64,000 bases of DNA, taken from NCBI RefSeq assembly GCF_000310185.1, contig NZ_AMXD01000003.1, forward strand, positions 1 to 64,000. Direction: 5' to 3'. Position 1 is the first letter of the stretch. Every line of letters starts with the position of its first letter. Source of the DNA: Thauera aminoaromatica S2 (lineage in GTDB: Bacteria > Pseudomonadota > Gammaproteobacteria > Burkholderiales > Rhodocyclaceae). Made by a program: the position numbers and the translations under genes. Under the pieces are notes generated by a model that saw only the letters and a list, made by a program, of their open reading frames with translations, did not search any database and was not told where the DNA came from. Shown here one piece after another: positions 1-12,736 of the stretch.

Positions 1-1677
1 GTCGAGCGCGCGCGCGCGGGCCGTCGCGGGCGCTGCGCGCTCGGGGGCAGTCACGGCCGCCGCCGCCGTGGGCAGCACGAAGCGCACGTGCGTGCCGCGC
101 CCCGGCGTGCTGAGGATGCGGATGTTGCCGCCCGACTGGCGTACGAAGCCATACACCATCGACAGGCCCAGCCCGCTGCCGCTGCCGAAGTCCTTGGTGG
201 TGAAGAAGGGCTCGAACACGCGCTGCAGCACGGCCGGCTCGATGCCCTTGCCGGTATCGCCGACGTCGATCTGCACGTAGTCGCCGGCCGCCACCTCGAC
301 CACCCCTGCGAGGGCCTCGTCGAGCTGGCGGCGACTCACGCCGATGGTCAGCTCGCCGCCCACGGGCATGGCGTCGCGTGCGTTGATCGCGAGGTTGAGG
401 ATCGCGTTTTCGAGCTGGTGCGGGTCGACCAGCGCGTGCACCGGCTCGCCGGGCAGGCGCAGATGGATGCGGATGGTTTCGCCCAAGGTGCGCGCGAGCA
501 GGTGCGTCATGTTGTGCACGAGCGCGCCGACCTCGACCGCGGTGGGGGCGAGCGACTGCCGGCGCGAGAAGGTGAGCAGGCGGCGGATCAGCTCGGCGCC
601 GCGCCGTGCCGCCTGCAGCGAGGGATCGACGAACTCCGCCCCCGGCCCGGCGCCGATGCGCTGCTGCAGTGCGGAGAGGTTGCCGATGATGATGGTGAGC
701 AGGTTGTTGAAGTCGTGCGCCAGCCCGCCGGTGAGCTGGCCCACCGCCTCCATCTTCTGCGCCTGCACCAGCGCGGCCTGGTTGGCCTTCTGTTCCGTGA
801 TGTCGGTGGTCATGACGAAGAAGCCCACCACCGTGCGCCCGTCGGTGCCGATCTCGGGCACCACCACGCTGCGTGCATGCAGCGTGCGACCGTCGGTCCC
901 GACGCGACTGTATTCGTAGCACACACGCTCGCCGGTGCGCGCGCGCTCGACCTGCGAGCGGATCTGGGCGTAGGCGTCCTCGCCGACCACCTCGCGAATG
1001 CTGCGGCCGACGATCTCGTCCTTCGGATAGCCGAACCATTCGGCGTAGCCGCGGTTGGCGAAGCGGTAGATCTCGCCGCCGTCCACATACGCGATCAGCG
1101 CGGGGATGGAGTCGATGATCAGTTGCAGGCGGTGTTCGCTGCGACGCAGCGCGCCGGCGATCTGGTCGATCTCGCTGTTGGCCTGCTCCAGCTCCGCCGT
1201 GCGCTCGCGCACGCGCGCTTCGAGCTGCGCGTTCTGCTGCTGGATCAGCGCCTCGTAGCGACGCTGCTCGGTGATGTCGGTCCATAGCGACACGAAACCG
1301 AGGTTGGGAATCGGCACCCCGCGTACCGCCAGCACCGTGCCGTTGGGCCGTGCGCGTTCGACGTAGTGCGGCAGGAAGGCCCGTGCCGCCGCCATGCGCT
1401 TCGCGACCAGGGTTTCGATGTCGCCTTCGCCGTATTCACCGCGTTCGGCGTTGAAGCGCACGAAGGCCTCGAACGGCGTGCCGACGCGCACCAGCGCCTC
1501 AGGGAAATCGAGCAGGCGCACCAGGGCCTTGTTCCAGGTGACGAGCTTGGGCGTGGTGTCGAACACCGCGATGGCCTGGTCGAGCAGATCGAGGCCTGCC
1601 AGCAGCAGGTCGTGCCGCCGGAGCTGCTCCGGAGTGAAGGCGGCGGGTTCAGCCTGAGGGGAGGGCGATCTTGCCAT
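1..1677 (-). CDS. PAS/PAS sensor histidine kinase, C-terminal end cut by window edge
   Basis: Reads without a stop from an ATG at 1677 to the window edge (559 codons). Residues about 20-135 form a PAS_7-like domain (LLDQAIAVFD, VTWNKALVRLLDFP), followed by a short coiled coil rich in Glu/Arg (QLEARVRERTAELEQ), a second PAS (residues about 180-300, ending in TTDITEQ) and a histidine kinase core. The phospho-acceptor is H321 in GLAHDFNNLL; N, G1 and G2 boxes follow (NAILNLAINARDAMP, DTGKGIEP, GSGLGLSMVYG). The core ends about 20 residues before the edge in an Ala-rich linker, so a receiver domain may follow outside the window. No N-terminal membrane segment is visible, so it is probably cytosolic. 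The start was chosen because a GGAG lies just upstream; upstream ATGs are out of frame. Partner and signal are unknown. Confidence 0.9.
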   Translation of the reverse strand, partial: MARSPSPQAEPAAFTPEQLRRHDLLLAGLDLLDQAIAVFDTTPKLVTWNKALVRLLDFPEALVRVGTPFEAFVRFNAERGEYGEGDIETLVAKRMAAARAFLPHYVERARPNGTVLAVRGVPIPNLGFVSLWTDITEQRRYEALIQQQNAQLEARVRERTAELEQANSEIDQIAGALRRSEHRLQLIIDSIPALIAYVDGGEIYRFANRGYAEWFGYPKDEIVGRSIREVVGEDAYAQIRSQVERARTGERVCYEYSRVGTDGRTLHARSVVVPEIGTDGRTVVGFFVMTTDITEQKANQAALVQAQKMEAVGQLTGGLAHDFNNLLTIIIGNLSALQQRIGAGPGAEFVDPSLQAARRGAELIRRLLTFSRRQSLAPTAVEVGALVHNMTHLLARTLGETIRIHLRLPGEPVHALVDPHQLENAILNLAINARDAMPVGGELTIGVSRRQLDEALAGVVEVAAGDYVQIDVGDTGKGIEPAVLQRVFEPFFTTKDFGSGSGLGLSMVYGFVRQSGGNIRILSTPGRGTHVRFVLPTAAAAVTAPERAAPATARARALD

Positions 1678-1905: not shown

Positions 1906-2235
1906 ATGGTCGTGATCGTATTCCGCACGCGCCTGCGCGCGGGCGTCGACGAGGCGGAACTCGAAGGTGTGGGCGCCCGCATGTTCCAGGTGGCCGCATC
2001 CATGCCGGGCTACGTCTCGTACAAGGATTTCGCGGCGGACGATGGCGAGTTCGTTTCCATCGTCGAGTTCGACTCGCTGGAGACCCTCGCCGCATGGCGC
2101 GACCACCCCGAGCACCGGGAGATCCAGGCGCGGGGCCGCAGTCGGTACTTCAGCGATTACCGGGTACAGGTGTGCACGACCGTGCGCGAGTACGCCTTCA
2201 CGCTGGACGGCGGGCGGGTCGAAGGGGCTTTGTGA
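1906..2235 (+). CDS. Small ABM-fold (antibiotic biosynthesis monooxygenase-like) protein
   Basis: A 109-residue protein. MVVIVFRTRLR, ARMFQVAASMPGYVSYKDF, EFVSIVEFDSLETLAAW and HREIQARGRSRYFSDYRVQV match the ferredoxin-like ABM/DUF4188-type fold (beta-alpha-beta-beta with a conserved W near the end of the third strand and a conserved H). Members oxidise small aromatic molecules or simply bind them; no catalytic set is firm enough here to claim an activity. The start at 1906 is preferred over upstream in-frame ATGs because GGGAGG lies 5 bases upstream and the fold begins at once. Its TGA is followed directly by the ATG of the STAND NTPase, so the two are probably translated in a coupled way. 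Confidence 0.75.
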   Translation: MVVIVFRTRLRAGVDEAELEGVGARMFQVAASMPGYVSYKDFAADDGEFVSIVEFDSLETLAAWRDHPEHREIQARGRSRYFSDYRVQVCTTVREYAFTLDGGRVEGAL

Positions 2236-5214
2236 ATGCCGGCGCCGCCCGAGAATCTTCGCGTCTTCGTCGCCTCGCCAGGTGATGTCGCGGCCGAGCG
2301 CAAGCTGGCGCTCGAGGTCATCAACGGCATGCAGCGGCGCTGGTTCGCGCGCGGAAAGGTGACGCTCGACACCGTCGAATGGGACGACGACCTTGCCCGG
2401 GTGCCGATGGCGGCGTCGGCGACGCCGGAGGATTCGGTCATCGACTACCTGGGCCGGCCGCGGGATTGCGAGCTCACGGTGGTCATCCTGTGGTCCCGCA
2501 TCGGCACGCGCCTGCCGAACTCGTTCCGCCGTGCCGACGGCAGTGCGTTCGAGTCGGGAACCGTCTGGGAACTCGAGGATGCAAGGGATCGCGGTCGCGA
2601 TGTGTGGGTCTACCGCTGCACCCGTCCGCTCGAGATCACGGGTGATGACCTCAAGGCCCAACGCGTCGACGAAAAGCTCGCGCAGTACAGGGCGGTGGAA
2701 GCTTACTTCGTGCGGGCATTCCAGAACCCCGATGGTTCGCTCAAGGGCGGCGTGAACACCTTCGATACGCCGACCAGCTTCGGGAAGGCGCTCGGAGAGC
2801 ACCTCGAGGCCTTCATCACGCGGCGCATCGATGCCCTGCGGGGCGCGAGTCCGCGTGCGCCCGCGGGCGGGGCGGGCGCAGGGGCGAAGCCCTGGCTGGT
2901 GCGCGAGCCCGTGCGCGATTACCACGTGGTGGGGCGCGCGGAGCTCGTCGACCGTGTGTGGCGCAAGCTGCGGGACGGCGTCGACACCAGCCTGCTGTTC
3001 CTGCCCGGCGTCGGCAAGACCACGGTCGCGCAGGAACTGCTGCGCGAGCGCGACAAGATCCTCGGGCATTTCGACGGCGTCTTGTGGGCCAATCTCGGCC
3101 GGCAACACGTCGACAGCGCGGAGCTGCGTGCATGGGGCGAAGCGCTCGGCATCCCGGCCGAGCGCATGAACAGTTTCGACGACAAGGAGCTTTGGCTGCG
3201 TGCGCTGCAGGACGCCATCGGCGACCGCTGCATGCTCGTGGTGCTCGACGACGTGTGGCGCACCGAGGATGCAAGGCGTTTCATGGAGCTGGGTCCGCGC
3301 TGTGTCTTCCTGTCCACCACGCGCTCGAAGACGGTGGCGAAGGAGCTCGGCGCCGGCGAGCTGGTCCCGGAGCTGGACCCGCCGCAGGCCTTCGGCCTCC
3401 TGTGCGAGGTCGCCCCGGGCGCCGTCGAGGCGGATCCGATGGCCGCCAAGGCCCTGCTCGGAACCCTGCAGGGCCTGCCGCTGGCGATCGTGCTGGTGGG
3501 CAAGGTCTTGCGCCGGGCGGCGAGCGAAGCGCATGCCGATCCCGCACGCCTGCGCCGCGCCTACGACGAGGTGGCGCAGGCGGGCCGCCGGCTCGGGCTG
3601 CTGCGTCCTGAAGACCAGCGCACGCTGGGGGAGGTGATCGAACTGTCCTTCGGCGCGCTGCGCAGCGACGCGGCGCGCGACGCGGCGACCGCGCTGTCCA
3701 TATTCCGTCCCAAGCCGAACGCCTTCGGCCGCGACATCGCGCTCGCCGTGGGGGAGGCCGACGAACAGACACTGGAGGACATCGGCGACATCGGGCTGAT
3801 CGAGCAGGTGGGCAAGGACGTGTTCACGATGCACCGCATCATCGCCGAGTACGCGCGCACCCGCTTGCCCCTGCAGTGCTCGCAGGCGCTGCATCGCAAG
3901 GCGCTCGCGTTCTATGCCGAGAAGCTGCGGGGCTCGATCGAGAGCGATCCGGATGCCTATCTGAGCTGGTATCGCCACGAATGGGCGGAGTGGCAGGAGA
4001 CCAAGGACGCCTGCCTGTACCACACCGCCCACAGCGGCGACTCGGTGGCGGGCGTGCTGGCTTTCCTGCGCGTGTTCTTCGATGCGTTCTGGTGGTGGGG
4101 CTACTACCAGCGCTTCCCGTTCTGCGAGCGGCTGGTCGTCGAGTGGAGGCAGCGCGAACTCGACGCGCGGGCGCGTGCCTTGATCGATCAGGTGGCAGCG
4201 TTCCAGGATGCCTACCCGGCGGGCCCCGACAAGCGTGCCGGCGGCGACTGGGTGCGCGCCGAGAGCGCGCTGCTCGGGATACGCAAGGCGCTCGGCCTCG
4301 ATGGCGATGGCCGCCACATCACCGGCGAGGACGCTCGACGGGTGCGTGCCTTCACCGATTTCTTCCTTGCCGAAGCACGGGCCTATGGGCGTGACGAGCG
4401 CGACGAGGCCTTGCGCTTCTACGAGGCGGCGCGCTCGCTGTTTCTCGACGACGGCGTGTCCTGGGTCGCGGCCTGGATCGAGTTCTATGTGGCCCAATAC
4501 CTGCTCGAGCGCGGCGAGTTCGCCGATGCCCGCCCGCATGCCCTGCGTTCCCTGGCCGAGGGCGCCGGCGAGTTTGGCGAGCGGGCGCCGCTCGCGGGGC
4601 GCGACTCCGAACTCATCGCCAACGACTATCGCCTGCTCGGCGATCTCGCGCTGGCTGCCGACGAGGTCGACGCGGCTGCCCGTGCCCATGGTCGGGCCAC
4701 GCTCTACGCCTACGTCTTCCAGGCGATCCCCGAGCCGGTGGACACCTACACGATGGACTTCTATGGCGAGATCGTCGGTCGTGTCGCCGCATCGATCGCG
4801 CGCTGCGGATCGGGTGACCAGCGCGGCCGCGCGCTGGCGCTTGCACTCCACGCCTTCTGGCGGCCTTGGCGGACGCATTGCGGCATCGGCGACGAACGCG
4901 ACGAACTGAATGCAGCGCTGGATGCCGGCGACCCGGGGCGCCTGGCCGCTGCGCTGTTCCCGCCCGCCCCGGCGGTGGACGCGTTCGACTTCATCGACCA
5001 GGCGGCATCCTACAGTCGCGCCGTGCTCGCGGTGGTGCCCTCGTTCGTGCACGAGCTGGGCCCGCTCGACGAGTTCATGGCGGAGGTGGTCAGGACCCTG
5101 GCGGGCGGAGTGGGAGCGGACGGCACAGCGCTTGCTGGGCATGCGCCCCTGTATCGCATCGACGCCCGCAAGGGGCGACTCCAGCTATGCCTCGGTCGGA
5201 CCGAATTCGCGTGA
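2236..5214 (+). CDS. STAND-type NTPase with DUF4062-like N-terminus and NB-ARC domain
   Basis: A 992-residue cytosolic protein. Residues about 8-200 resemble DUF4062 (LRVFVASPGDVAAERK, VVILWSRIGTRLP, SGTVWELEDA), a domain common at the N-terminus of bacterial STAND NTPases. Residues about 235-560 are NB-ARC: LPGVGKTTVAQ (P-loop, 256-266), VVLDDVW (kinase 2, about 335-341), FLSTTRS, GLPLAIVL and MHRIIAEYA (MHD-like, M532-R534). The C-terminal 430 residues are helical with at least one TPR-like unit (YLLERGEFADARPHALRSL). The first P-loop glycine is replaced: the loop reads LLFLPGVGKTT, where family members have G two positions before PGVGKTT. STAND proteins with sensor repeats often act as ligand-triggered switches, including in phage defence; a defence role here is inference. 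Gene starts right after the ABM gene stop. Confidence 0.88.
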   Translation: MPAPPENLRVFVASPGDVAAERKLALEVINGMQRRWFARGKVTLDTVEWDDDLARVPMAASATPEDSVIDYLGRPRDCELTVVILWSRIGTRLPNSFRRADGSAFESGTVWELEDARDRGRDVWVYRCTRPLEITGDDLKAQRVDEKLAQYRAVEAYFVRAFQNPDGSLKGGVNTFDTPTSFGKALGEHLEAFITRRIDALRGASPRAPAGGAGAGAKPWLVREPVRDYHVVGRAELVDRVWRKLRDGVDTSLLFLPGVGKTTVAQELLRERDKILGHFDGVLWANLGRQHVDSAELRAWGEALGIPAERMNSFDDKELWLRALQDAIGDRCMLVVLDDVWRTEDARRFMELGPRCVFLSTTRSKTVAKELGAGELVPELDPPQAFGLLCEVAPGAVEADPMAAKALLGTLQGLPLAIVLVGKVLRRAASEAHADPARLRRAYDEVAQAGRRLGLLRPEDQRTLGEVIELSFGALRSDAARDAATALSIFRPKPNAFGRDIALAVGEADEQTLEDIGDIGLIEQVGKDVFTMHRIIAEYARTRLPLQCSQALHRKALAFYAEKLRGSIESDPDAYLSWYRHEWAEWQETKDACLYHTAHSGDSVAGVLAFLRVFFDAFWWWGYYQRFPFCERLVVEWRQRELDARARALIDQVAAFQDAYPAGPDKRAGGDWVRAESALLGIRKALGLDGDGRHITGEDARRVRAFTDFFLAEARAYGRDERDEALRFYEAARSLFLDDGVSWVAAWIEFYVAQYLLERGEFADARPHALRSLAEGAGEFGERAPLAGRDSELIANDYRLLGDLALAADEVDAAARAHGRATLYAYVFQAIPEPVDTYTMDFYGEIVGRVAASIARCGSGDQRGRALALALHAFWRPWRTHCGIGDERDELNAALDAGDPGRLAAALFPPAPAVDAFDFIDQAASYSRAVLAVVPSFVHELGPLDEFMAEVVRTLAGGVGADGTALAGHAPLYRIDARKGRLQLCLGRTEFA

Positions 5215-6342
5215 TCGCTGCCGTCCGGCGGTGACACGGGGGGTTGGGGCAGGGCGCCTGTCCGGACCGGCAGACGCCGCGGGAAGACCGTCGTTGCCCG
5301 CCAGCCGGTGCCGGAACTGCTCCGGCGACATGCCGCTCCAGGCGACGAAGGCGCGGTAGAAGGTGGACGGGTCGGCGTAGCCGAGCTCGGCCGCGATGCG
5401 GGCGATGGGCTGGCGGGTCTTGGCCAGGCGCGCATAGGCGATGTCGCGGCGGGTGGCCTCCTTGATGTTGCGGAATCCCGAGCCCTCATCCTCCAGCCGC
5501 CGGTGCAGGGTGCGCGGCGACACGTGCAGGCGCTCGGCGACCTCTTCGAGCGAAAGGTTCTGCGGCAGCGCGTCGCGCAGGATGTCGCGCACGCGGAAGA
5601 CCATCTCGCGGTCGCGCCGGTAGAGGGTGGTGATCTTTCCCGGTGCGCCCTCGAGGAAGCCGACCAGCGCCGCCTCGTCGCGGCGCAGCGGCAGCGCCAG
5701 CAGGTTGGCCTGCAGGCGGGCGGCCAGCTGCGGCGCGTCGAAGCTCGAATGCTCGGTGTAGACGAGCGCGTAGTCGTCCGCATGGGCCGGGCGTGCGTAA
5801 GGGAAGGCGACCGCGTCGAGCGCCAGGCCGCGGCCGACGAACCAGCTCGCCACGCCGTGCAGCAGGCGCAGCAGCCATTCGTAGGCGAACACGCGCGCCG
5901 GGGCGTCGAGCCCGGGGCCGAGGCTGCCGCCGTCGTCCAGCAGCAACTCGGCGCGCGCGCCGTCCACCCGCAGCTCAATGCGGAAGGCGGGCAACACGAT
6001 GCGCAGGAAGCGGATCGCGCGCAGCAGGGCCTCGCCCAGCGTGGGCGCGCCGAGCAGTGCGCGGCAGAGGAACTCGAAGCTGCCCGGGCGCATCGGCTCC
6101 GGGAGCAGGCCGAAGGCCTCGTCTTCAAGTGCCTCCACGCACAGGTTGTAGAGCAGGGCGTAGCGCTCGACTGGGATGCGCGTGTCGGTTTCTGCAAGGT
6201 CGATCCCGGCGCGTGCGAGCAGCGGCGCCCCATCGAGTCCGCGCCGCTGCAGCCCGGCCAGCATGCCGGTGACGAAGCCGGGCGCGACCGTGGCGCGGCT
6301 ACGGCGGGGGATCGCTGAAGCGGAAAGGCTGGGAGTCGACAG
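5185..6342 (-). CDS. AraC-family transcriptional regulator (arabinose-binding-like N-terminus)
   Basis: Residues about 15-200 match the Arabinose_bd domain of OruR/ArgR-type AraC regulators (FVTGMLAGLQRRGLDGAPLLARAGI, ERYALLYNLCVEALEDEAFGL). The C-terminal AraC double helix-turn-helix is complete (EEVAERLHVSPRTLHRRL and IARIAAELGYADPSTFYRAF), followed by the usual SPEQFRHR. The start is uncertain. The best ribosome site, AGGAG, precedes a CTG at 6342 at good spacing and gives the family-like N-terminus. ATG at 6441 would add 33 atypical residues, and ATG at 6264 would remove conserved ones. The last 30 bases overlap the 3' end of the STAND gene tail to tail. It may regulate icmF, which lies divergently 310 bases away, but no operator is recognised. 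Confidence 0.85.
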   Translation of the reverse strand: MSTPSLSASAIPRRSRATVAPGFVTGMLAGLQRRGLDGAPLLARAGIDLAETDTRIPVERYALLYNLCVEALEDEAFGLLPEPMRPGSFEFLCRALLGAPTLGEALLRAIRFLRIVLPAFRIELRVDGARAELLLDDGGSLGPGLDAPARVFAYEWLLRLLHGVASWFVGRGLALDAVAFPYARPAHADDYALVYTEHSSFDAPQLAARLQANLLALPLRRDEAALVGFLEGAPGKITTLYRRDREMVFRVRDILRDALPQNLSLEEVAERLHVSPRTLHRRLEDEGSGFRNIKEATRRDIAYARLAKTRQPIARIAAELGYADPSTFYRAFVAWSGMSPEQFRHRLAGNDGLPAASAGPDRRPAPTPRVTAGRQRSREFGPTEA

Positions 6343-6654: not shown

Positions 6655-9600
6655 ATGACCGATCTGAGCGTTGCGCACAAGCTGTCGCCCTACAAGCCGA
6701 AGAACAAGGTGCGTTTCGTCACCGCTGCCGCGCTGTTCGACGGCCATGACGCGTCCATCAACATCATGCGCCGCATCCTGCAGTCGACCGGCTCCGAGGT
6801 CATCCACCTCGGTCACAACCGCTCGGTCGGCGAGATCGTCAATGCGGCGCTGCAGGAGGACGTGCAGGGCATCGCGATCACCTCCTACCAGGGTGGTCAC
6901 GTCGAGTTCTTCAAGTACATGATCGACCTGCTGCGCGCCAACGGCGGCGAGAACATCAAGGTCTTCGGCGGCGGTGGCGGCGTGATCGTGCCGGCCGAGA
7001 TCAAGGAACTCCACGAGTACGGCGTCACCCACATCTTCTCGCCCGAAGACGGCGCCAAGATGGGCCTTCAGGGCATGATCAACAGCGTCGTCGAGCGCTG
7101 CGACGTCGACGTCGCCAAGGCCGCGCCGCAGAAGGCCGATGCGGTGCTCAAGGCGCTCGCCGCCGGCGATCGCCGCGCGCTCGCGCAGATCATCACCGCG
7201 CTGGAGAACGGCGGCTACGGCGACGAGGTCAAGAAGGCGCTGATCGAGGCCGCGGCCAAGACCAAGGTGCCGACGCTCGGCATCACCGGCACCGGCGGCG
7301 CGGGCAAGTCCTCGCTGACCGACGAGCTGGTGCGCCGCTTCCGCCTCGACCAGGACGACAAGCTCAAGCTCGCCATCGTCTCCATCGACCCCTCGCGCAA
7401 GCGCACCGGCGGCGCGCTGCTCGGCGACCGCATCCGCATGAACGCGATCGAGCACGCCAACATCTACATGCGCTCGCTCGCCACCCGCGACACCGGCTCG
7501 GAAGTCTCCGCCGCGCTGCCCGAAGTCATCGCCGCGTGCAAGCTCGCGGGCTTCGACCTCGTCATCGTCGAGACCTCCGGCATCGGCCAGGGCAACGCCG
7601 CGATCGTGCCCTTCGTCGATCTGTCGCTGTACGTCATGACCCCGGAGTTCGGTGCCGCCAGCCAGCTCGAGAAGATCGACATGCTCGACTTCGCCGACTT
7701 CGTCGCCATCAACAAGTTCGACCGCAAGGGCGCGCTGGACGCGCTGCGCGACGTTGCCAAGCAGTACCAGCGCAACCGCGAGCTGTTCAACCAGCGCCCC
7801 GAAGAGATGCCGGTGTTCGGCACCATGGCCGCGCGCTTCAATGACGACGGCGTCACCGCGCTCTATCAGGCCGTGCTGCCGGCGCTCGTCGGCAAGGGCC
7901 TCAAGGTCGCCAAGAGCAAGCTGCCGGTGGTCAAGGTGCGCGCCTCGTCCGAAGGTCGCGCCATCGTCCCCGCCGACCGCACGCGCTACCTCGCCGAGAT
8001 CGCCGACACCGTGCGCGGCTACCACAAGCACATCGAGCAGCAGGCTCGCGTCGCGCGCGAGCGCCAGTCGCTGAAGATCGCCAAGGGCCTCTTCGAGCAG
8101 TGCGGCAAGGACGCGGGCTCGTTCGCGGAACTCATCGACTGGAAGGACGGCGAGCTCACCCCGGCCGCGAAGAAGCTGCTCGACATGTGGCCGAAGACGC
8201 GCGAGCTCTACGCCGCCGACGAGTACGTGGTGAAGATCCGCGACAAGGAGATCCGCACCCAGCTCACCAGCACCTCGCTGTCGGGCAGCAAGATCCGCAA
8301 GGTGGCGCTGCCGAATTTCGAGGACGCGGGCGAGACGCTCAAGTTCCTGATGAAGGAGAACGTCCCCGGCTCCTTCCCCTACACCGCCGGCGTGTTCGCG
8401 TTCAAGCGCGAGGGCGAGGACCCCACCCGCATGTTCGCCGGCGAGGGCGATGCCTTCCGCACCAATCGCCGCTTCAAGAAGGTGTCCGAGGGCATGCCGG
8501 CGCACCGCCTGTCCACCGCCTTCGACTCGGTCACCCTGTACGGCTGCGATCCCGACCTGCGTCCGGACATCTACGGCAAGATCGGCAACTCCGGCGTGTC
8601 GATCGCCACGCTCGACGACATGAAGGTGCTGTACGACGGCTTCGACCTGTGCTGCCCGACCACCTCGGTGTCGATGACGATCAACGGCCCGGCGCCGATC
8701 ATCCTGGCCTTCTTCTTCAACACCGCGCTCGACCAGCAGGTGACCAAGTTCAAGGCCGACAACGGCCGCGAGCCCACCGAGGACGAGCTGCAGAAGATCA
8801 AGGAGTGGACGCTGTCGACCGTGCGCGGCACCGTGCAGGCCGACATCCTGAAGGAAGACCAGGGCCAGAACACCTGCATCTTCAGTACCGAGTTCGCGCT
8901 CAAGATGATGGGCGACATCCAGGAGTACTTCGTTCATCACGACGTCAAGAACTTCTATTCGGTATCGATCTCCGGCTATCACATCGCCGAAGCCGGCGCC
9001 AACCCGATCAGCCAGCTCGCCTTCACGCTGTCGAACGGCTTCACCTACGTGGAGTCCTACCTCGCGCGCGGCATGCACATCGACGACTTCGCGCCCAACC
9101 TGTCCTTCTTCTTCAGCAACGGCATGGACCCGGAGTACTCGGTGATCGGCCGCGTCGCCCGCCGCATCTGGGCGGTGGCGATGAAGAACAAGTACGGCGC
9201 CAACGAGCGCAGCCAGAAGCTGAAGTACCACGTGCAGACCTCCGGCCGCTCGCTGCACGCGCAGGAGATGGACTTCAACGACATCCGCACCACGCTGCAG
9301 GCGCTGATCGCGATCTACGACAACTGCAACTCGCTGCATACCAACGCCTACGACGAAGCGATCACCACGCCGACCGAGGAGTCCGTGCGGCGTGCGATGG
9401 CGATCCAGCTCATCATCAACCGCGAGTGGGGCCTGGCCAAGAACGAGAACCCCAACCAGGGCGCCTTCATCATCGAGGAGCTCACCGACCTCGTCGAGGA
9501 AGCCGTGTTGAAGGAGTTCGAGGCCATCGCGTCGCGTGGCGGCGTGCTCGGTGCCATGGAGACCGGCTACCAGCGCGGCAAGATCCAGGAGGAGTCGCTC

Positions 9601-9921
9601 TACTACGAGCACAAGAAGCACGACGGCTCCTACCCGATCATCGGCGTGAACACCTTCCTCAATCCGAAGGGCCAGGCGCAGCAGGAGATCGAGCTCGCCC
9701 GTTCGACCGAGGAGGAGAAGCAGGGCCAGTTGAAGCGCCTTGCCGACTTCCACGCCCGCAACAAGGACCAGGCGCCCAAGTGGCAGGCCAAGCTGCAGCA
9801 GGCCGTCATCGACAACACCAACGTGTTCGAGGTGCTGGTCGATGCGGTGCGCTACTGCTCGCTGGGGCAGATCACCGAGGCGCTGTACAAGGTGGGCGGG
9901 CAGTACCGCCGCAGCATGTAA
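6655..9921 (+). CDS. icmF: Fused isobutyryl-CoA mutase / G-protein chaperone (IcmF)
   Basis: A 1088-residue fusion that interconverts isobutyryl-CoA and n-butyryl-CoA by an adenosylcobalamin radical mechanism. Order: B12-binding domain (residues about 18-150, D29-G-H31-D-A-S with H31 the expected lower cobalt ligand), MeaB-type GTPase (P-loop GTGGAGKSS at 212-220, NKFD base motif), then the mutase barrel (about 560-1088). The two substrate-selecting positions known from Cupriavidus IcmF fall on F594 (RMFAGEG) and Q738 (GQNTCIF), 144 residues apart as in that enzyme. This pair is typical of isobutyryl-CoA rather than methylmalonyl-CoA mutases (Tyr/Arg). The ATG follows GGAG at fitting distance. 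No other B12 enzyme gene is nearby; REP-like repeats flank the gene on both sides. Family members with relaxed specificity can act on pivalyl/isovaleryl-CoA. Confidence 0.97.
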
Positions 9922-10528: not shown

Positions 10529-11653
10529 TCACCGGCTTGTCAGCTTGAGCTCGATGCGGCGGTTGCGCGTGTAGGCTTCCTCGGTGCTGCGCGCATCGAG
10601 CGGGTGGAACTCCCCGTAGCCGGTCGCGGCCAGGCGCTCGGGCGGGATGCCCTGGCCGCGCAGGAACTTGACGATGGCGAGGGCGCGGGCGGTCGATAGC
10701 TCCCAGTTCGACGGGAAGCGGGCGGTGGCGATCGGGCGGCGGTCGGTGTGGCCGTCCACCTGCAGGACCCAGGGCAGGTCCTTGGGCATGTCGGCGGACA
10801 GCGTCTTCAGCGTCTCGGCCAGGCGGGTGAGCTGGACCATGCCGTCGGCGCTGACCTCGTCCGAGGCGGAGGCGAACAGCACCTCGCTGGAGAAGACGAA
10901 GCGGTCGCCGACGATCTGCACGTCCTTGCGCTTGCCGAGCACCTCCTGCAGGCGGCCGAAGAACTCGGAGCGGTAACGTGCGAGTTCCTTGACGCGGCCG
11001 GCAAGCGCCAGGTTGAGCTCGCGGCCGAGCTCCTCGAGCTTCAGATCCTTGTCCTTGGCCGCGAGCTTGGCGGCGTCGAGTGCCGCATTGAGCTGCTCGA
11101 GTTGCTCGCGCACCGCGGCGAGCTGGCGATTGAGCAACTCGACCTGGGCGATCGCGGCGGCGGACATCTCCTTGTGTTCCTTCAGGCCGCGCTCCGAGGT
11201 GTCGAGTGCGCTCGCCAGGCGGGCGGCCTCGGCCTCGAGCTCGGTCTTCAGGCGCTGCAGGGCCTCGATGTCGGCAACGATGCGGGTGGCCTCCTCGCGG
11301 CGGCTGCGCGCCTCGTCCTGGGCGGCGTGGAGCTCGTCGCGCGCGGCGAGCAGCTCGTTGCCGCGCGCTTCGCTCTCGCGCCGGGCGGCGCTCAGCGAGG
11401 CCGAGAGCTCGCCGACCTCGGCCTCCGCTCGTTGGCGCGCGCTCTGTTCCAGGCTCAGTGTCCTGGCGAGGGTGGCGAGCTCGGCCTCGAGCTGGGCGAG
11501 CGCGCGGTCGCGGCCGCTCACCGCGTCGGCGAGCACGAACTGGCCGATGACGAAGATCAGGATCACGAACACCATCACCATCAGCAGCGAGGCGAGGGCG
11601 TCGACGAAGCCGGGCCAGAAATCCAGCGGCCGGCGGCGGGCGAGTCGGGCCAT
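10529..11653 (-). CDS. OmpA/MotB-like peptidoglycan-binding stator protein with long coiled coil
   Basis: 374 residues: short basic cytosolic tail, one membrane helix (about 16-40, DALASLLMVMVFVILIFVIG), a long alpha-helical coiled coil (about 45-225, rich in E, A, R, L), and a C-terminal OmpA domain (about 240-374; ATARFPSNWELSTARAL, GYGEFHP, NRRIEL). D18 sits at the cytosolic start of the membrane helix, the position of the proton-binding Asp of MotB and ZorB. It begins three bases after the MotA/ExbB-like gene and certainly works with it, probably as a 5:2 proton-driven motor anchored to peptidoglycan. It is not next to flagellar genes. Related pairs include Zorya ZorA/ZorB and uncharacterised housekeeping stators. 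Confidence 0.87.
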   Translation of the reverse strand: MARLARRRPLDFWPGFVDALASLLMVMVFVILIFVIGQFVLADAVSGRDRALAQLEAELATLARTLSLEQSARQRAEAEVGELSASLSAARRESEARGNELLAARDELHAAQDEARSRREEATRIVADIEALQRLKTELEAEAARLASALDTSERGLKEHKEMSAAAIAQVELLNRQLAAVREQLEQLNAALDAAKLAAKDKDLKLEELGRELNLALAGRVKELARYRSEFFGRLQEVLGKRKDVQIVGDRFVFSSEVLFASASDEVSADGMVQLTRLAETLKTLSADMPKDLPWVLQVDGHTDRRPIATARFPSNWELSTARALAIVKFLRGQGIPPERLAATGYGEFHPLDARSTEEAYTRNRRIELKLTSR

Positions 11654-11656
11654 GGC

Positions 11657-12736
11657 TCAGTCCGCCTTGCTGCCGGCGGCGCCACCGAGCGCGGCGCCGA
11701 TGGTGCGCGACAGCAGGCGCAGCTCGGCGCGCAGGTCCTCGGTGAATTGCGCGCCCTGTGCGGGCTGCTGGGCGAGCTGGCGCAACAGCGCGCGCAGTTC
11801 GTCCTGCGTGGTGGACAGCGTGGACAGGTCGCGTGATTCGCGCCCGATGAGATCGGCCAGGCGGGTGAGCTGGGCGTTGAGCTCGCCGAGGTGCTCGGCG
11901 GTGGCGCGGCGCTCGCGCTCGGATTCGGCCGCCGAGCGCTGCATGCGTTCGATGCCCTCGGCGGTCTGCTCGAGCAGGGCCTGGACGTAGGCGGGCACGT
12001 TGCCCTCGCCCTCGGCGCCGACGCCGGAGGGCAGCTTGGTCATGTGCGAGAGCCAGTCCTCGAGCTCGTTGTAGAAGCGGTTCTGCGCATGCCCGGACTG
12101 CAGATCGAGGAAGCCGACCACGAGCGAGCCGGCCAGGCCGAAGAGCGAGGTCGAGAAGCTGGTGGCCATGCCGCCGAGCGGCGCGTCCAGCTTGGCCTTC
12201 AGCGCCTCGAACATGGCGACGGGATCGCTGCCGACGCTCAGGCTGCCGATGATCTCGCCGATGGACCGGATGGTGGCGAGCAGGCCCCAGAAGGTGCCGA
12301 GCAGGCCGAGGAAGATCAGCAGGCCGATCAGGTAGCGCGAGAGGTCGCGCTGCTCCTCGAGGCGGATCTGCACGCCGTCGAGGATGGAGCGGGTGGAGGC
12401 CGGCGACAGGTGGGCCTGGCCGCGACGGCGGTTGGAGAGCACACGTGCCATCGGGGCGAGCAGCACCGGCTGCAGGCCGGTGGCCGAGCCGCCGCCGGCG
12501 CTGTGCTGGAATTCCTCGATCCACAGCACCTCACGCTGCAGCCGCCACACCTGGCGCAGATTGACTGCGATGCCGACCGCGAGGACGAAGAGGATCACGC
12601 CGTTGAATGCGGCGTTGGCGATGAAGGCGTGCTTGAGTTGCGGGACCAGGGCGGCGGCGAGCGCGGCGACGAGGGCGAGAAACACGGCCATCCAGGTCGT
12701 GACATGGACGGGTCTGGTGAAATCCTTGCGTTCCAT
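11657..12736 (-). CDS. MotA/TolQ/ExbB-like proton channel protein
   Basis: 359 residues. Two N-terminal membrane helices (about 13-35 and 42-60), then two core helices carrying family motifs: IGLLIFLGLLGTFWGLLATI (about 132-155) and GGMATSFSTSLFGLAGSLVV (about 190-212). The final 120 residues are a charged helical tail (EGIERMQRSAAESERERRATAEHL), much longer than in ExbB or TolQ and reminiscent of the cytosolic tail of ZorA. Expected to form a pentamer around a dimer of the OmpA-like protein encoded immediately downstream. The function of the motor is unknown; neither ZorC/ZorD/ZorE-like genes nor ton/tol genes are beside it. Confidence 0.87.
   Translation of the reverse strand: MERKDFTRPVHVTTWMAVFLALVAALAAALVPQLKHAFIANAAFNGVILFVLAVGIAVNLRQVWRLQREVLWIEEFQHSAGGGSATGLQPVLLAPMARVLSNRRRGQAHLSPASTRSILDGVQIRLEEQRDLSRYLIGLLIFLGLLGTFWGLLATIRSIGEIIGSLSVGSDPVAMFEALKAKLDAPLGGMATSFSTSLFGLAGSLVVGFLDLQSGHAQNRFYNELEDWLSHMTKLPSGVGAEGEGNVPAYVQALLEQTAEGIERMQRSAAESERERRATAEHLGELNAQLTRLADLIGRESRDLSTLSTTQDELRALLRQLAQQPAQGAQFTEDLRAELRLLSRTIGAALGGAAGSKAD

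What the first reader, a model, noticed from the sequence alone, without database searches (positions are those of the whole stretch)
2236..5214. STAND NTPase with an altered P-loop, a candidate sensor or defence protein
The NB-ARC core keeps GKTT, LDDVW, the GLPLA motif and an MHR in place of MHD, yet the first glycine of Walker A is missing (LLFLPGVGKTT, where relatives have HGxPGVGKTT). Either a few codons were lost or ATP binding is changed. DUF4062-like N-termini and STAND cores occur in recently described anti-phage proteins (Avs and related), but this exact arrangement is not one I can match to a known system.
Basis: partly seen in the sequence, partly recalled or inferred. Interest (0 to 1): 0.6.

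Follow-up and report, generated by a model that had tools for sequence, protein, structure and literature searches.

The report
ABM–STAND operon with NADase-like head
This gene encodes a bacterial relative of plant and animal immune receptors that probably kills its own cell by destroying NAD when it senses a threat; its odd ATP-binding loop is shared by its whole family, and a small partner protein and interchangeable killing modules go with it.

Summary
The ORF is real (2236-5214 +, 992 aa): a DUF4062/TIR-like domain, an NB-ARC core and C-terminal TPR-like helices. The missing first Walker A glycine is neither an error nor a deletion. It is replaced (F, Y, V, L or H) in all 12 family members found, while nearly all other NB-ARC proteins checked keep Gly. 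Lys-Thr and Walker B are intact, so nucleotide binding is probably retained.

A 109-aa ABM-fold protein (1906-2235) abuts it; close homologues lie directly upstream of the STAND operon in 11 of 12 loci and were not found elsewhere in the genomes sampled. The output is swapped within the family. Five members carry a fused DUF4062 domain (a family with published NADases) and one a weaker TIR-like domain. The other six instead have a separate BELL-like protein (decayed in one) whose C-terminal motif matches its own STAND N-terminus, as in bacterial amyloid signalling (BASS). At this locus the operon is absent from 21 genus-mates.

Best explanation: an NLR-like abortive-infection system with NADase output and an ABM partner of unknown role. 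New variant of a known kind; nothing was tested at the bench.

The parts
1906..2235 (+). ABM-fold (PF03992) partner protein, 109 aa; its stop codon abuts the STAND start codon
   Evidence: Pfam 34.1 bits against cut-off 23.1; sequence; close homologue upstream of the STAND operon in 11 of 12 loci
2236..5214 (+). STAND gene, 992 aa: DUF4062/TIR-like - NB-ARC - TPR-like
2236..2850 (+). N-terminal DUF4062/TIR-like domain; candidate catalytic Glu E112 (codon 2569-2571) in ESGTVWELEDA
   Evidence: Pfam DUF4062 in 7 of 7 aligned members; TEP1 TIR-like match E 3e-4; model pLDDT 80, DNPH1/NDT/TIR Z 10-13
2941..3516 (+). NB-ARC core
   Evidence: Pfam PF00931
2998..3024 (+). Walker A FLPGVGKTT with F255 at the place of the first Gly
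   Evidence: family alignment, controls
3244..3258 (+). Walker B LDDVW
3829..3837 (+). MHR motif (MHD position)
3868..4980 (+). C-terminal helical, TPR-like region (limits approximate) with invariant core of FFDAFWWWGYY at 4075-4107; presumed sensor
   Evidence: model and TPR-protein matches, TPR_12 in relative L027, alignment

Best explanation
The window carries a two-gene, NLR-like conflict operon. The STAND protein is thought to rest with nucleotide in its NB-ARC core and its TPR-like C-terminus holding it closed. A trigger, probably a phage product or an infection-caused change, opens it and it oligomerises. That clusters the N-terminal DUF4062 domains into an active NAD(P) hydrolase; NAD falls and the cell dies or stalls before phage is released. 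The co-encoded ABM-fold protein is a dedicated component, most likely on the input or regulatory side, because it stays the same while the output module changes. The loss of the first Walker A glycine is a family trait and the loop probably still binds nucleotide. Shown by sequence: architecture, operon, family-wide P-loop change, output swapping, insertion at a site empty in relatives. Inferred: NADase activity, oligomerisation, phage trigger, ABM role.
For: DUF4062 by Pfam in 7 of 7 aligned N-domains, TEP1 TIR-like match and NDT/TIR fold; published DUF4062 NADases including an antiphage one (PMC13174449). NB-ARC, plant-NLR-like fold of the core and TPR-like helices. ABM upstream in 11 of 12 loci and its strong hits only beside the STAND operon. 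Outputs swapped to BELL-like plus paired motifs in relatives. The same N-domain is fused to SIR2 in the same genome. Absent from the locus in 21 genus-mates.
Against: No experiment. The window's own DUF4062 match is weak alone (E 0.037). No known defence gene was recognised beside the operon in the neighbours tested. The core model has low confidence. The ABM function is unknown and one relative (L026) lacks it.
Confidence: 0.6

Rival explanations
1. It is a stress or self-damage death switch rather than an antiphage system: the ABM protein senses or makes a small molecule (quinone, haem, reactive species) and triggers the STAND NADase.
For: ABM-fold proteins are often small-molecule enzymes or binders (established knowledge); the ABM gene is more conserved (55-92% identity) than the STAND core (34-93%) and constant across output types; no known defence neighbours recognised.
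Against: Patchy, inserted distribution and the output types used (DUF4062, BELL-like) are typical of conflict systems (PMC13174449, PMC7889193).
Confidence: 0.2
2. It is an ordinary MalT-like STAND regulator or metabolic sensor with an inert N-terminal domain.
For: STAND-TPR proteins include transcription regulators such as MalT (established knowledge; PMC4381067); the neighbouring genes in the window are ordinary.
Against: No DNA-binding domain was found; the conserved Glu motif of the N-domain is kept; relatives swap the domain for BELL-like partners.
Confidence: 0.12
3. The P-loop is dead and the protein works as a nucleotide-independent scaffold, or is decaying.
For: Non-Gly, mostly bulky residues at the first Walker A position in all 12 members, against Gly in nearly all controls.
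Against: GK[TS], Walker B Asp-Asp and GLPxA are kept across cores only 34% identical, which argues for selection on nucleotide binding; the ORFs are intact.
Confidence: 0.07

Closest known systems
DUF4062 TIR-like NADases: Swarozyc and TEP1 of the vault (preprint PMC13174449)
   Same: N-terminal DUF4062 fold with an aligned conserved Glu; the preprint discusses DUF4062-STAND layouts in human TEP1, NWD1, NWD2 and NPHP3
   Different: Swarozyc joins DUF4062 to a portal-binding auxiliary domain, not to NB-ARC-TPR, and no ABM partner is mentioned in the parts read
BELL/BASS amyloid NLR pairs (Dyrka et al. 2020, as reviewed in PMC7889193)
   Same: Relatives of this same core have a small BELL-like protein and a STAND protein sharing a motif at C- and N-terminus
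   Different: The window's member has no such protein or motif; it carries a fused DUF4062 domain instead. The review places BASS mainly in filamentous bacteria; these loci are from a betaproteobacterial group
Bacterial AP-ATPase/TPR conflict proteins (NCBIfam FxSxx_TPR; PMC7159879)
   Same: NB-ARC followed by TPR; weak match 55.6 bits over residues 226-571
   Different: Far below the 300-bit cut-off; no FxSxx peptide system or vWA partner seen; no first Walker A Gly
Avs (AVAST) antiphage STAND proteins
   Same: STAND core with N-terminal effector and C-terminal repeat sensor, by analogy
   Different: No PADLOC Avs model matched at E<=1; the only hit was PDC-S60, on the N-domain
ABM family protein YqjZ of B. 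subtilis (2go8)
   Same: The partner gene product matches at E 2e-10
   Different: Other ABM genes examined stand alone or in unrelated contexts; this subfamily is tied to the STAND operon

Membership tests
STAND / NB-ARC (AP-ATPase) | NB-ARC domain over the curated cut-off | tested here: met
   78.3 bits against 23.5
STAND / NB-ARC (AP-ATPase) | Canonical Walker A, [AG]xxxxGK[ST] | tested here: not met
   First position is F255, family-wide never Gly or Ala; GKTT kept
STAND / NB-ARC (AP-ATPase) | Nucleotide binding and nucleotide-driven oligomerisation | not testable with these tools
   Needs purified protein
DUF4062 TIR-like NADase | DUF4062 domain with TIR/NDT fold | tested here: met
   7 of 7 members match PF13271, best E 1e-4, though the window alone is below the gathering score; TEP1 match E 3e-4; fold Z 10-13
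DUF4062 TIR-like NADase | Conserved candidate catalytic Glu | tested here: met
   E112 invariant in A3 and A4, aligned with a Glu of TEP1; identity with E1008 not verified
DUF4062 TIR-like NADase | NAD hydrolysis | not testable with these tools
   No assay
Swarozyc | C-terminal portal-binding auxiliary (HTH/winged) domain directly after DUF4062 | tested here: not met
   NB-ARC and TPR-like region follow instead
Avs (AVAST) | Match to an Avs profile | tested here: not met
   PADLOC scan to E 1 gave only PDC-S60
BELL/BASS amyloid NLR pair | Adjacent small effector sharing a C-terminal motif with the NLR N-terminus | tested here: not met
   Absent in the window (ABM abuts the STAND start); present in relatives L007, L008, L026, L032, L033
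BELL/BASS amyloid NLR pair | Amyloid formation by the shared motif (relatives) | not testable with these tools
   Only motif similarity was measured
ABM family (partner gene) | PF03992 over the curated cut-off | tested here: met
   34.1 bits against 23.1

The most novel reading that the evidence does not exclude
A dedicated ABM-fold protein is the input or licensing partner of a distinct NLR family whose P-loop lacks the first glycine. The family keeps sensor core and ABM while exchanging its executioner between a fused NADase and an amyloid-coupled BELL-like protein: a plug-in immune receptor platform in betaproteobacteria.
Probability: 0.35. Interest if true: 0.75.

Novelty: new variant of a known kind. 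Interest (0 to 1): 0.55.

Why it matters
One homologous NLR core that uses either a TIR-like NADase or an amyloid-linked BELL-like partner would let both output modes be compared on the same sensor. The constant ABM gene points to an unstudied input component. DUF4062-STAND-TPR also mirrors the layout that the vault preprint discusses for TEP1 and related human proteins, in bacteria where genetics is easier.

Tried and rejected
Base-call error or codon deletion at the P-loop: rejected, family-wide and in register. Avs: no PADLOC match. Phage or plasmid carriage: no phage match; plasmid matches cover only parts of the protein. Viral contigs: none for the core; five for the DUF4062 domain, in other architectures. 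Spread: a class sample (369 genomes) gave no other full-length member and an order sample (399) only G593, already known. Defence island: the neighbours tested gave no convincing hit; the UvrD-like hit in L027 and the Mot-like pair in the window look generic. Haem-oxygenase role for ABM: considered from memory, not tested. Papers: no report of an ABM-STAND pair in the library searched; most subscription papers are not held. The core structure model is too weak to judge P-loop geometry. The BELL-like proteins matched no Pfam family convincingly, and the two of them that were scanned matched no PADLOC family.

Full report
Observation. The ORF 2236-5214 (+) is intact and encodes 992 aa. Pfam places NB-ARC at 236-427 (E 7e-22). 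It is the only NB-ARC match in its genome.

P-loop. I collected 11 relatives that align over the core: nine in genomes of the same family or genus and two Thiobacillus MAGs. Pairwise core identity ranges from 34 to 93%. The residue six before the Walker A Lys is F in five members, Y in three, L in two, V in one and H in one, never Gly or Ala, with no gap in the loop. Controls: 7 of 7 other Pfam NB-ARC hits from the phylum have Gly there; among eight plasmid NB-ARC genes seven have Gly and one has Ser. So the change is real, old and family-defining, though not absolutely unique. GK[TS], Walker B and GLPxA persist, which suggests that nucleotide binding is still under selection (inference).

N-terminal domain. 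Each of seven aligned N-domains, including two from DUF4062-SIR2 fusions (one in the window's own genome), matches Pfam DUF4062; the best E is 1e-4, the window alone 0.037. A profile of the window domain with five viral-contig relatives finds the solved TEP1 TIR-like domain at E 3e-4, aligning E112 with a Glu in SGRSVTEMEV; I did not check that this is the published catalytic Glu, E1008. AlphaFold2 gives pLDDT 80. The model matches DNPH1, MilB, nucleoside deoxyribosyltransferases and the RPS4 TIR at Z 10-13. A 2026 preprint shows that DUF4062 proteins hydrolyse NAD and that one, Swarozyc, is an abortive antiphage system triggered by phage portal (PMC13174449). NADase activity here is inferred.

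Core and C-terminus. The core model is of low confidence overall (pLDDT 59), but its NB part matches the plant NLRs NRC and ZAR1 at Z about 13, and its C-terminal helices match TPR proteins. Such Z values are common for helical repeats, so the TPR reading rests partly on the TPR_12 match in relative L027.

Partner gene. The ORF directly upstream (1906-2235) is an ABM-fold protein whose TGA abuts the STAND ATG. A close homologue lies just upstream in 11 of 12 family loci, next to the STAND gene or to the BELL-like gene between them; L026 is the exception. In 299 family genomes the eight strong ABM hits (58% identity or more) all lie beside family STAND operons; in 29 genus genomes ABM occurs only in the two that have the STAND gene. 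Weaker ABM homologues (36-47%) sit elsewhere. ABM and STAND distances correlate (r 0.66, none of 10,000 permutations as high). One exception is telling: the ABM proteins of the window and of L027 are 82% identical while their STAND cores are 37%, so the STAND gene may have been exchanged behind a constant ABM (inference).

Swapped outputs. Five members, one clade with 98/98 support, carry the fused DUF4062 domain. L027 carries a weaker DUF4062/TIR-like domain. Six have no fused enzyme. Five of those six have a separate protein of about 130 aa beginning MDPV or MDPI with small hydrophobic residues, just upstream of the STAND gene; in L034 it is truncated. Its last 45 residues match the N-terminus of its own STAND protein (scores 47-60, shuffle p at most 0.0006), and this exceeds the scores with other operons, except between the near-identical L007 and L008. 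That is the published arrangement of BELL proteins and BASS amyloid motifs (PMC7889193). I call them BELL-like from layout and motif pairing only; no Pfam family matched them convincingly, and amyloid formation is untested.

Mobility. In 21 genus-mates the histidine-kinase gene (window 1-1677) and the AraC-type gene (about 5290-6310) are neighbours, within a few hundred bases, without the operon. In the window they are about 3.6 kb apart. The operon is therefore an insertion here, or was lost many times. The relative in G017, a genus-mate, lies at a different place. Target-site repeats were not tested.

Mechanism and verdict. The most economical reading is an NLR-like conflict system: NB-ARC/TPR sensor, NAD-depleting output, and an ABM partner on the input or regulatory side, with confidence 0.6. 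It is a new variant of a known kind: its parts are known, but the ABM-STAND pairing, the family-wide P-loop change and the exchange of outputs on one core were not found in the papers searched. That library holds open-licence papers only.

Noticed in passing
G000:C21:32119-32706 (L006, L035) and L005/L036: The same DUF4062-like N-domain (47% identical) is fused to a SIR2-like domain in a 528-aa protein of the window's own genome and of a genus-mate; it also hits ThsA and SIR2 defence models weakly.
   Followed up: partly
L059:4891-7349: A 39%-identical ABM gene lies upstream of a protein with an N-terminal AMPFG (TIR/NDT-like by eye) region and Pfam TPR-S; possibly an independent ABM partnership.
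   Followed up: partly
L027:12938-16579, L007:4726-8024, L008:7637-9444: In G017 and two Thiobacillus MAGs the operon sits beside the same RoxA-like cytochrome c genes although the STAND cores are only 34-35% identical; the cytochrome genes occur without the operon in other genus members, the window's genome among them.
   Followed up: partly
L034:7663-10405: The BELL-like gene appears truncated and out of frame, with a BASS-like stretch left just ahead of the STAND start: a decayed or fused operon.
   Followed up: no
window 10529-12736 (-): Gene pair like MotB/OmpA and MotA/ExbB with weak Zorya ZorA/ZorB matches; no other Zorya gene was looked for.
   Followed up: no
window 6655-9921 (+): Fused B12-binding, MeaB-like GTPase and mutase protein of IcmF type, ordinary.
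   Followed up: no
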